Positions 48,943-56,968 of a DNA stretch of 64,000 nt are shown in pieces. The stretch spans positions 11,379,623 to 11,443,622 of the forward strand of contig NC_133165.1 in assembly GCF_040802235.1 (NCBI RefSeq). The letters are read 5' to 3'. The notes beneath the pieces are model-generated. The model did not search any database and was not told where the DNA came from. It saw only the letters and a program-made list of their open reading frames with translations. The stretch comes from Manis javanica. Taxonomy: Eukaryota > Chordata > Mammalia > Pholidota > Manidae. Both the position numbers and the translations under genes were made by a program. The stretch's first letter is position 1, and each line of letters begins with the position of its first letter.

Positions 48943-49276
48943 TGTTGGCAGCCACGCTCAGAAAATAGCGCCCAATGCAGGGCAGCCGGAAGGCCCCGAA
49001 CTTCCTAATGACAAATCATCCCACACCACTAAACTACATGCTAATTGCGCCTTGGCATAAGGACCAATGAGACCCACCAAATGGTTATGCTAATAAGGCA
49101 TATGGAGCCGCACCAACCAGGTCAGAGCATGAGAACTATATAAGCAAGCCTCTCCTTCCCCTCTGGGTCCTGCCCAACTCATTTGTTTCACAAAGAGCTG
49201 AAGAATAAAGCTTTCTGCAGAAGAATCCTGCTGTTGTTGTGTGCTGTTCTTGCCGGCGAGGACAGGGCACGCGACA
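48943..49276 (+). repeat. 5' LTR of the betaretroviral provirus
   Basis: Has TG...CA ends (TGTTGGC to GCGACA). U3 has CCAAT at 49064-49068 and a TATATAAG box at 49137-49144. R holds AATAAA at 49204-49209, followed by a GT-rich stretch (CTGTTGTTGTGTGCTG) typical of downstream poly-A elements, then a short U5. Compared with the 3' LTR it differs at 48954 (A vs G), 49104 (G vs A) and 49254 (C vs T), all transitions. Confidence 0.97.
49137..49144 (+). promoter_or_regulatory. TATA box of the proviral promoter
   Basis: TATATAAG, 67 bases before the AATAAA. Transcription start is expected about 25-30 bases downstream, which would make R about 60-70 bases and U3 about 220 bases. Confidence 0.8.
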
Positions 49277-49278
49277 AG

Positions 49279-49296
49279 TGGTGCCGAATCCCGGGA
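49279..49296 (+). promoter_or_regulatory. Primer binding site, tRNA-Phe-like with one mismatch
   Basis: TGGTGCCGAATCCCGGGA, two bases after the LTR. It differs at one position (T for A) from the tRNA-Phe primer site seen perfectly in the class I ERV at 4258-4275. Betaretroviruses mostly use tRNA-Lys primers, so this is unusual for the class. The tRNA match is from recollection of the tRNA 3' end. Confidence 0.75.
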
Positions 49297-49379
49297 ACCA
49301 GAACATCACCGGCACAGGGAGGACCCTTCAGACATCTGGAGAGGATTCAGAACTGCAGGTCAGAAGAAAGCCCGGAGGG

Positions 49380-54604: not shown

Positions 54605-56288
54605 GCCTATGCCTGTCCGTTTCAATGCAGCCGTTTTTCCACGCTTTTTCACTACCAATGCTAGTATGAACTTGCCCTACTTAGTTAAAGACACCCTAGT
54701 AGCTCCCCTGGGAGAAAACCGATCCTTCGTAACTAATGGGTCATTATGCTTCACCACTCAGAATCTAGCTGGCTGTATCTCCCTGAAACGGAGGAAATAC
54801 GGATGGTTCAGTGACATAATTCTAGAGGCCAGTAGCCTCCCCGTTATGTCAGCTAAATTTGAAGGGCCTAATAAGGAAGGGAGCCCGTCCTATAAGAACA
54901 TGACTATCCACCAGATGGTTCTCTGGATCAATGGCACATTTGTACACTCTCCCAGGAACAATTCCACCGACAGGCCTCGTCAACCCAAATATGCCTCCCA
55001 TTGTGTGGGCGACTATGAGGGAGAGCTGTGGCCCTGGACTGACTGTCAGTCAACTGTAGTAATGTGGGCAACTGAGAGGCAGGAGTTTACCATCTCCCCA
55101 GATATGGAGGGACGGCCAGCCAATGAGGCTTGGTGGCCAGTAAAGGTGCTCGAAGGCGAGTTTCGTCAGCAGCTGAGCATGAACCCCTTCCATAAATGGA
55201 TGCTGTGTGGAGTCAATGGCTCGTGTACCGACCTCTCCCCCTTTTCCGCCCTCCAGGGTGGGGGAATCGGTGTAAAAAATATCACCTTTTGGTGCGAGAA
55301 TAACCACATGCGCGCACACTGGAACATGATCATGACCCATAACAATGAGAACTACACGTGTTCAGCAAAATCAGGTCCAGAGTCACCTAATTCCCTTTTT
55401 CCACCTTCTCCAGTATGCATATACCCCCCATTTCTGTTTATCTTATCCAATAGTAGCTTTGACTCCTGCTCCAATGAAACCTGCTTTCTGTCTCAGTGTT
55501 GGGATGCGCGTAACTTTACCAATGCTTTGGTAGTCCGCATCCCCCGTTGGGTCCCTGTTCCCGTAGACGCCCCTAACACCATGACTCTGTTTCGAGAAAG
55601 GCGCGATTTCGGCGTTACAGCCGCCATAGTGCTCCTGATCTCCGCGACCGCGGTCGCAGCCACCGCCGCTGGTATAGCTTTAGACACCTCCATCAAATCG
55701 GCTACAGAGCTCAATAACCTTGCAGCCTCAGTAGCTTCTGCCCTGGACCAACAGTCCACACTTGATGGCAAACTGAAAGGAGGAATAATGATCCTCAATC
55801 AACGCATAGATCTCGTGGAGGAACAAATAGAGGTGCTCTGGCAAATGGCCCAATTGGGATGTGAGCGGAAATATCGTGCCCTCTGCATCACTAGCATTCA
55901 ATATAAAAATTTTACACGGGCAGCTAATCTGTCACGAGACCTGTCCCAGTATCTTTCAGGAAACTGGTCCCAAGACTTCGATGGGACACTAGAAGAGCTG
56001 CGGCGAGAAATTATCCACATCAACTCCACCCATCTAGATATCTCCGTAGCGGAAGGACTCTCTTCCTGGTTCCTCAGAGCTCTCTCCCACGTCAAGGAGT
56101 GGGCGGGCATGGCTGGGATGGGCGTGTTCCTGCTTGGAGGTCTCATGCTCTTACTCTGGTTGTTATGCAGACTCTGCAACCAACATAAGCAGGACAAGGT
56201 GATCCTTGCTCAAGCCCTAATGGCGATAGACGTTGGCGCCTCTCCCCAAGTGTGGCTCAACATGCTTAAGAAGGAAGCTCGGCTTTAG
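54513..56288 (+). CDS. env: Env glycoprotein (intact, 591 aa), beta-type surface and transmembrane subunits
   Basis: Membrane fusion glycoprotein. It starts at an ATG inside pol with a hydrophobic signal peptide (about residues 1-19), then a surface subunit with many NXS/T sites (NAS, NRS, NGS, NGT, NNS, NYT and others) and a Cys-rich end. A furin-type R-E-R-R at 361-364 is followed by an Ala-rich fusion peptide (about 368-385). A heptad-repeat coiled coil follows, then a CX7C at C450-C458, the form in HERV-K-like betaretroviral TM subunits rather than CX6CC. A membrane span lies at about 531-553, then a cytoplasmic tail of about 38 residues. The frame is uninterrupted. Receptor unknown. Confidence 0.93.
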   Translation: MTSLYLLTLLLTLETPTQGVLRWGILSAFPKPMPVRFNAAVFPRFFTTNASMNLPYLVKDTLVAPLGENRSFVTNGSLCFTTQNLAGCISLKRRKYGWFSDIILEASSLPVMSAKFEGPNKEGSPSYKNMTIHQMVLWINGTFVHSPRNNSTDRPRQPKYASHCVGDYEGELWPWTDCQSTVVMWATERQEFTISPDMEGRPANEAWWPVKVLEGEFRQQLSMNPFHKWMLCGVNGSCTDLSPFSALQGGGIGVKNITFWCENNHMRAHWNMIMTHNNENYTCSAKSGPESPNSLFPPSPVCIYPPFLFILSNSSFDSCSNETCFLSQCWDARNFTNALVVRIPRWVPVPVDAPNTMTLFRERRDFGVTAAIVLLISATAVAATAAGIALDTSIKSATELNNLAASVASALDQQSTLDGKLKGGIMILNQRIDLVEEQIEVLWQMAQLGCERKYRALCITSIQYKNFTRAANLSRDLSQYLSGNWSQDFDGTLEELRREIIHINSTHLDISVAEGLSSWFLRALSHVKEWAGMAGMGVFLLGGLMLLLWLLCRLCNQHKQDKVILAQALMAIDVGASPQVWLNMLKKEARL

Positions 56289-56634
56289 CTTGAGGTAGCT
56301 CTTGCACCCTGAGCCCATGTGGCACTGCACCAGGCCCGAGTACCTCAATGCTTAATCACAGCTTTCTTTAAGAAGCTCATGGTGCAAGAGGGTTGAGAAA
56401 AAGGGTCCAAACCCTTTGTACCAAGCGGTCCCAACGCCAGCCAGAGGATGCGAGGCAAAGCACTGCAAGAGGTCTTGGACCCCTCTGAGAGGCATGCCTG
56501 ACTGCATAGGGGTAGATGCCCAGAACCCCTCTCCAAAAAGGGGGCATCAAGAAGTATGATGGAGGTCAGGCCTCTGTCTCCGCCTCTGCTGGCAAGTTCC
56601 GCCTTGAGCTTCTGTTAGACAAAAAAGGGGGAGA
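56289..56634 (+). promoter_or_regulatory. Post-env structured region (candidate RNA export element) with polypurine tract
   Basis: 346 non-coding bases between env and the 3' LTR. A 15-base inverted repeat (56299-56313 with 56376-56390, one mismatch) forms a long arm, and GGGTCCAA (56403-56410) pairs exactly with TTGGACCC (56475-56482). Some type D betaretroviruses carry a constitutive transport element here that recruits NXF1 to export unspliced RNA; position and structure make this a candidate, not a demonstration. The polypurine tract AAAAAAGGGGGAGA ends it at 56621-56634. Confidence 0.5.
56621..56634 (+). promoter_or_regulatory. Polypurine tract
   Basis: AAAAAAGGGGGAGA directly abuts the 3' LTR and would prime plus-strand synthesis. 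Confidence 0.95.
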
Positions 56635-56968
56635 TGTTGGCAGCCGCGCTCAGAAAATAGCGCCCAATGCAGGGCAGCCGGAAGGCCCCGAACTTCCTAA
56701 TGACAAATCATCCCACACCACTAAACTACATGCTAATTGCGCCTTGGCATAAGGACCAATGAGACCCACCAAATGGTTATGCTAATAAGGCATATAGAGC
56801 CGCACCAACCAGGTCAGAGCATGAGAACTATATAAGCAAGCCTCTCCTTCCCCTCTGGGTCCTGCCCAACTCATTTGTTTCACAAAGAGCTGAAGAATAA
56901 AGCTTTCTGCAGAAGAATCCTGCTGTTGTTGTGTGCTGTTCTTGCTGGCGAGGACAGGGCACGCGACA
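56635..56968 (+). repeat. 3' LTR of the betaretroviral provirus
   Basis: 334 bp, same length and ends as the 5' LTR, with TATATAAG at 56829-56836 and AATAAA at 56896-56901. Differences at 56646 (G), 56796 (A) and 56946 (T). At 56646 and 56946 one LTR has a CpG that the other lacks, consistent with methylation-driven decay since insertion. Confidence 0.97.

What the first reader, a model, noticed from the sequence alone, without database searches (positions are those of the whole stretch)
48943..56968. Complete, apparently intact young betaretroviral provirus
Two equal-length LTRs differing at 3 of 334 positions, a perfect 6-bp target duplication, and uninterrupted gag, pro, pol and env with all catalytic motifs I could check. 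Most endogenous class II proviruses in mammals are broken or solo LTRs. At commonly used mammalian neutral rates (about 2e-9 per site per year per lineage, an assumption) 0.9% divergence implies roughly 2 million years or less. Such a copy could be expressed, could make particles, or could be polymorphic.
Basis: partly seen in the sequence, partly recalled or inferred. Interest (0 to 1): 0.92.

Follow-up and report, generated by a model that had tools for sequence, protein, structure and literature searches.

The report
Intact IAP-type provirus in pangolin DNA
This is a complete, recently inserted retrovirus copy in what is almost certainly pangolin DNA, a cousin of the rodent 'IAP' elements that still has its envelope gene; it is a well-preserved example of a known kind rather than something new.

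Summary
Window 48943-56968 is an 8,026-bp provirus. Its 334-bp LTRs differ at 3 sites, it has a perfect 6-bp target duplication (GTATAC), and gag, dUTPase-protease, pol and env are all open. The joined flanks align across the empty site to L1-like sequence.

The label needs sharpening. The primer site matches tRNA-Phe at 17 of 18 bases, not the Lys site of MPMV. The best-scoring named Pol hit is an IAP Pol (64%), and 41 of 66 named Gag hits among the 120 listed are 'IgE-binding protein-like', recalled as the IAP Gag name. So it is an IAPE-like (IAP with env) class II ERV. Env is 98% identical to a Manis javanica protein: the host is almost certainly Malayan pangolin or very close kin.

Age is loose: about 2.3 My at 2e-9, 95% Poisson range 0.46-6.6 My. 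Highly similar coding sequences are deposited, so it is probably not alone. IAP-like ERVs in this species, and a comparable Chinese-pangolin lineage, are in print. Copy number, polymorphism and activity are untested: the host-genome search did not complete.

The parts
48937..48942 (.). target site duplication, left copy (GTATAC)
48943..49276 (+). 5' LTR, 334 bp; TATATAAG at 49137, AATAAA at 49204
49279..49296 (+). primer binding site, 17 of 18 bases complementary to the 3' end of tRNA-Phe (tRNA sequence recalled)
49380..49385 (+). candidate major splice donor GTAAGT in the leader (inferred from sequence)
   Evidence: sequence printed
49447..51204 (+). gag, 585 aa: MGNAPS N-terminus (G2, candidate myristoylation), PPPY at 219, major homology region, two CCHC boxes
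51057..51063 (+). gag-pro slippery heptamer A AAA AAC in the correct phase
51027..51977 (+). pro frame: dUTPase, aspartic protease (DTGAD), G-patch
51965..51971 (+). pro-pol slippery heptamer G GGT TTT in the correct phase
51953..54604 (+). pol frame, 883 aa: RT (YMDD), RNase H, integrase
54438..54451 (+). candidate env splice acceptor (pyrimidine-rich tract then CAG); the env ATG is the first ATG after it (inferred)
   Evidence: sequence printed
54513..56288 (+). env, 591 aa: SU, RERR cleavage site at 361, hydrophobic stretch after it (fusion peptide), TM with C-X7-C (no CX6CC), hydrophobic anchor near 534; 17 N-glycosylation sequons
56621..56634 (+). polypurine tract AAAAAAGGGGGAGA
56635..56968 (+). 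3' LTR, 331 of 334 identical to the 5' LTR
56969..56974 (.). target site duplication, right copy (GTATAC)

Best explanation
An intact, full-length, IAPE-like class II endogenous retrovirus in a pangolin (Manis javanica or very close kin). Shown: paired LTRs, a tRNA-Phe-type primer site, four open frames, slippery heptamers in phase at both frame junctions, polypurine tract, target duplication, and flanks that join into L1-like sequence. Inferred: transcription from the 5' LTR, Gag-Pro-Pol made by two -1 frameshifts, Env from a spliced mRNA, and Gag targeted to the plasma membrane (G2 and PPPY) rather than to the ER as in env-less IAP. The lineage therefore most likely spread by germline reinfection and not only by intracellular retrotransposition. 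This copy inserted within roughly the last 0.5-6.6 million years and is probably one of several similar copies.
For: Provirus anatomy. Host: Env 98% to a Manis javanica protein; the next named species, M. pentadactyla, 61%. IAP kinship: best-scoring named Pol hit is 'Intracisternal A-particle Pol-related polyprotein' (64%; species not printed, groups with Mus rows), and a Chinese hamster IAP Pol is 65% over 84%; a 70-row Pol tree puts it in a 40-row fork (SH-aLRT 97, midpoint-rooted, inner order open) with both; 41 of 66 named Gag hits of the 120 listed are IgE-binding protein-like. Youth: 3 of 334 LTR differences, CpG observed/expected 0.46 against 0.19 and 0.17 in two flanking stretches. Spread by infection: against M. 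pentadactyla P0007, Env is 17-60% identical in SU blocks 81-320 and 74-90% in blocks from 361 on, while the two best M. pentadactyla Gag hits are 88% and 92% over 83% and 60%.
Against: No expression, particle or copy-number data: the own-genome search failed 11 times. RNA folds after the two slippery sites are no better than shuffles (z -0.80 and -0.36); pseudoknots were not modelled. The host rests on Env matches: the closest Gag (P0177) and Pol (P0054) rows carry no species. The Gag contrast uses the two best of six M. pentadactyla hits; the other four are 75-84% over 46-61%, Gag itself dips to 57-75% near residues 161-240, and Gag and Env hits are not known to come from one provirus. SU variability could come from recombination alone. 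If the lineage is ERV-Alpha-Mpen, that paper reports an Alpha-family insertion shared by both pangolins, so the family may be older than this copy.
Confidence: 0.86

Rival explanations
1. A Betaretrovirus proper (MMTV/MPMV/JSRV type).
For: Class II gene order with dUTPase and G-patch in pro; Pol, Gag and TM also match HERV-K and other class II structures (the HERV-K name of the 7sr6 polymerase is recalled).
Against: tRNA-Phe-type primer site; the best-scoring named Pol hit is IAP and the commonest Gag name is IgE-binding protein-like. No side-by-side tree with ICTV betaretroviruses was made.
Confidence: 0.1
2. A copy preserved because the host uses one of its genes (co-option), rather than by youth.
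For: All four frames open; neutral chance of no disabling hit estimated at 0.04-0.30 depending on the indel rate assumed.
Against: Low LTR divergence and high CpG content fit youth; all four genes are open, not one; highly similar sequences exist elsewhere.
Confidence: 0.04
3. The LTR pair was homogenised by gene conversion, so the provirus is older than it looks.
For: Similar family sequences exist that could act as donors; shared Alpha-family insertion between the two pangolins in PMC12584738.
Against: CpG observed/expected of the whole provirus is 0.46 against 0.17-0.19 in flanks; open frames.
Confidence: 0.07

Closest known systems
Mouse IAPE (IAP elements with an envelope gene)
   Same: gag-pro-pol-env with beta-type Env (PMC3758190, passages) and IAP-type Pol; IAPE is described as infectious and as progenitor of IAP (PMC2531183, part 1 of 4 read; PMC3236903, whole text)
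   Different: Host order; the best named rodent Env hit over at least 90% of the length is 48%. Mouse IAPE uses ephrin-A; the receptor here is unknown.
Rodent IAP
   Same: Pol 64-65%; tRNA-Phe primer site (IAP primer use recalled)
   Different: IAP have lost env and moved to the ER (PMC3236903); this has env, an MG N-terminus and PPPY
ERV-Alpha-Mpen of the Chinese pangolin (PMC12584738, parts 1-3 of 5 read)
   Same: Lies between alpha- and betaretroviruses; dUTPase and G-patch; the paper gives the gamma and alpha groups Pro and Phe primer sites; some LTRs cluster with a Dfam LTR of M. javanica; dated 1.41-3.47 Mya
   Different: Not compared by sequence here. The paper excepts ERV-Alpha from its Cys-His box and PPPY statement; this Gag has both.
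IAP-like ERV genes of the Malayan pangolin (PMC10776870, passages read)
   Same: IAP given as 11% of the genome's 6,076 ERV genes; the most abundant group among skin ERV genes whose expression changed was nearest to mouse IAP
   Different: Genes listed by best match; no intact provirus described in the passages seen

Membership tests
Endogenous retrovirus (provirus) | Paired LTRs, target duplication, primer site, polypurine tract, gag-pro-pol | tested here: met
IAPE-like group | tRNA-Phe primer site | tested here: met
   17 of 18 bases; tRNA sequence and IAP primer use recalled
IAPE-like group | Pol closest to IAP | tested here: met
   best-scoring named hit among the 120 of 628 listed; most listed rows are unnamed; tree midpoint-rooted with long-branch warnings, order inside the 40-row fork open
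IAPE-like group | Intact beta-type Env (no CX6CC) | tested here: met
IAPE-like group | Plasma-membrane budding, infectivity | not testable with these tools
   only sequence hints: MG N-terminus and PPPY
Betaretrovirus proper (MPMV type) | tRNA-Lys primer site | tested here: not met
   tRNA-Phe-type site; MPMV Lys-1,2 site per PMC12584738
Betaretrovirus proper (MPMV type) | RT groups with ICTV betaretroviruses in a rooted tree | not tested
   no ICTV reference sequences were at hand
Invading ERV (ERVi) of PMC10435555 | Identical LTRs | tested here: not met
   3 differences
Invading ERV (ERVi) of PMC10435555 | Intact gag, pro, pol, env | tested here: met
Invading ERV (ERVi) of PMC10435555 | Insertional polymorphism | not testable with these tools
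   no population data
ERV-Alpha-Mpen | Sequence identity to that lineage | not tested
   no sequence or coordinates of it were seen

The most novel reading that the evidence does not exclude
Pangolins carry a still-active, reinfecting IAPE-type retrovirus lineage with a fast-diversifying SU. It would be an intact non-rodent relative against which the loss of env and the turn to intracellular life of rodent IAP could be studied.
Probability: 0.25. Interest if true: 0.65.

Novelty: new member of a known kind. Interest (0 to 1): 0.42.

Why it matters
Rodent IAP elements are a well-known case of a virus that turned into an intracellular parasite after losing its envelope. A complete, young, env-bearing relative outside rodents gives a natural comparison for that step and adds to the record of recent retroviral entry into a critically endangered mammal. 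It also warns that gene models named from this family in pangolin annotation are viral.

Tried and rejected
The own-genome search for LTR copies was sent 11 times in the same form and never answered, so copy number, solo LTRs and the empty site in the assembly remain unknown. A viral-contig scan with Pol found no relative. Rfam (gathering threshold) and tRNA scans of the window were empty. RNA structure after the slippery sites was not above shuffles. A bacterial promoter and terminator scan of the LTR has no bearing and was disregarded. Two papers, on IAPE infectivity and on env-less ERVs, are not held. I considered co-option and gene conversion (see rivals); hypermutation was not tested.

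Rows dropped before trees: the Pol tree used 69 listed hits plus the window (67 of the 120 listed, those of at least 800 aa, plus P0104 and P0114), the 120 being part of 628 hits. The Env tree used 34 of 53 hits plus the window: those of at least 480 aa less four fusion or mixed models (P0021, P0044, P0052, P0053), plus five shorter pangolin or lemur rows. The Gag tree used 33 of the 120 listed hits (of 315), chosen by name or rank, plus the window; three M. pentadactyla rows (P0221, P0244, P0266) were left out.

Full report
What is there. Positions 48943-56968 hold a provirus of 8,026 bp. The 334-bp LTRs (48943-49276, 56635-56968) are identical at 331 of 334 positions and GTATAC is duplicated on both sides. 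Stop-to-stop frames of 588, 316, 883 and 594 codons cover gag, pro, pol and env, and Pfam finds Gag p10 and p24, two zinc knuckles, dUTPase, protease, G-patch, RT, thumb, RNase H, three integrase domains and a GP41-type TM. The motifs I searched for are in place: DTGAD protease, dUTPase motifs, YMDD, RNase H motifs, integrase HHCC and the first two integrase aspartates; the final D-35-E spacing I counted by eye.

How it would be expressed. The leader has a primer site at 49279-49296 that matches 17 of 18 bases of tRNA-Phe (tRNA recalled). A slippery A AAA AAC lies in phase in the gag-pro overlap at 51057 and G GGT TTT in the pro-pol overlap at 51965. A second heptamer, GGGAAAC at 51037, is out of phase. 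Folding downstream of each in-phase site gave no structure better than shuffles, so frameshifting is supported by heptamer and frame only. A GTAAGT donor near 49380 and a pyrimidine-rich acceptor ending at 54451 would make an env mRNA whose first ATG is that of env; this is read from the sequence and untested.

Where it sits. Joining the flanks and keeping one GTATAC gives a sequence that aligns at 70% across the junction (with small gaps) to a stretch at 16929-17157 on the opposite strand. That stretch lies a few kb downstream of L1 ORF1 and endonuclease matches (12917-14937), so I take the target to be an old L1 copy; this is inference.

Whose genome. Env is 98% identical to a Manis javanica protein (P0001, cluster of 72 sequences; P0002, 97% over 77%, cluster of 18), then 61% to M. 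pentadactyla and, over at least 90% of the length, 48% to the best named rodent. Four closer rows (P0003-P0006, 68-72%) have no name. The closest Gag and Pol rows (P0177, P0054, both 99%) are unnamed too. The host is thus Malayan pangolin or a close relative; the tools gave no name for the window itself.

What kind. The first Pol hit with a name, P0089, is an IAP Pol-related polyprotein (64%; the species is not printed), and a Chinese hamster IAP Pol is 65% over 84%. Among the 120 listed Gag hits, 66 carry a name and 41 of these are IgE-binding protein-like, which I recall as the IAP Gag name; they come from rodents, lemur, colugo, cetaceans, shrew and pangolin. In a 70-row Pol tree the window and P0054 share a 40-row fork (SH-aLRT 97) with the IAP rows, its inner order left open; the tree is midpoint-rooted, quick, and carries long-branch warnings. 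In Env and Gag trees the named pangolin rows used and some unnamed rows form one clade with support 100 (13 of 35 and 7 of 34 rows). Env lacks CX6CC and matches a HERV-K TM structure (9nnd, E 6.1e-9). Gag starts MGNAPS and has PPPY. These features fit an IAPE-like virus that would bud at the surface. Mouse IAPE is described as infectious, the progenitor of IAP, with ephrin-A receptors (PMC3236903, whole text; PMC2531183, part 1 of 4). IAPs are said to be related to betaretroviruses, and IAPE to carry beta-type env (PMC3758190, passages).

How old. The K80 distance is 0.0091. At 2e-9 the point estimate is 2.3 My with 95% Poisson limits of 0.46-6.6 My. Two of three differences are CpG-type transitions, which would make the date too old. 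CpG observed/expected is 0.46 in the provirus and 0.19 and 0.17 in two flanking stretches. Under neutrality the chance that all four frames stay open is about 0.04-0.30, depending on an assumed indel rate, so intactness alone is no proof of selection.

One copy or many. Very similar proteins exist: Gag differs at 5 of 585 residues from P0177 (cluster of 16 sequences) and Pol at 6 of 869 from P0054 (cluster of 14, 6 contigs), and Env is 98.3% identical to P0001. Clusters are made at 90% identity and count deposited sequences, not loci; only the representatives were compared. The host-genome search did not answer in 11 tries.

A pattern worth following. Against M. pentadactyla, the two best Gag hits are 88% and 92% over 83% and 60% of the length; four more are 75-84% over 46-61%. 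Env against P0007 falls to 17-60% in blocks 81-320 and stands at 74-90% from 361 on. The unnamed pair P0178 (Gag, 84%) and P0003 (Env, 72%), each with a longest contig of 7,671 bases and so perhaps one provirus, shows the same direction more mildly. P0026 is 78-95% identical over the first 120 residues and 53-84% afterwards, which suggests mosaic SU. Gag too has a weaker stretch near residues 161-240 (57-75% against P0178 and P0179). I read this as diversification of an infectious lineage; recombination alone could also do it.

Already in print. The Chinese pangolin has ERV-Alpha-Mpen (13 copies, dated 1.41-3.47 Mya), placed between alpha- and betaretroviruses; the authors show five insertions shared with the Malayan pangolin, one panel for the Alpha family (PMC12584738, parts 1-3 of 5). 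I think it is this kind, but I did not compare sequences, and its authors except it from their Cys-His and PPPY statement. If it is the same lineage, the shared insertion means the family may be older than this copy. The Malayan pangolin has many IAP-like ERV genes, some expressed in skin (PMC10776870, passages). Both pangolins are named in a figure of species with invading ERVs (PMC10435555, sections 6 and 8 and passages); supplements could not be read, so whether this lineage is among them is unknown. My searches for pangolin or Manis javanica with betaretrovirus, LTR or intracisternal terms listed no paper whose title or start of abstract describes this provirus; only some of the papers listed were opened, and most subscription papers are not held.

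Verdict. The kind is known; the value lies in an intact, young, env-bearing IAP relative outside rodents.

Noticed in passing
window 1-2598, minus strand: Remains of a gammaretrovirus-type element: Gag p30 at 1540-2598 and an RNase H-like match at 2-283; the other six minus-strand frames tried between and beside them gave no retroviral match; it seems to run beyond the window.
   Followed up: partly
window 12000-18000, plus strand: Degraded L1 with ORF1 RNA-binding domain (12917-13504) and endonuclease match (14140-14937); strong A-over-T skew.
   Followed up: partly
window 48068-48556 and 57557-58062: Two stretches on either side of the provirus are 69% alike on the same strand; perhaps overlapping old L1 pieces or an old duplication.
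   Followed up: no
P0141: A Trypanosoma congolense protein record 66% identical to this Pol over 75%; it falls among Mus rows in the tree and is probably host contamination of that assembly.
   Followed up: no
P0052, P0021: Env-like proteins carry names of host genes (a vomeronasal receptor in Peromyscus leucopus, an anaphase-promoting complex subunit 13 isoform in Jaculus), probably annotation chimeras.
   Followed up: no
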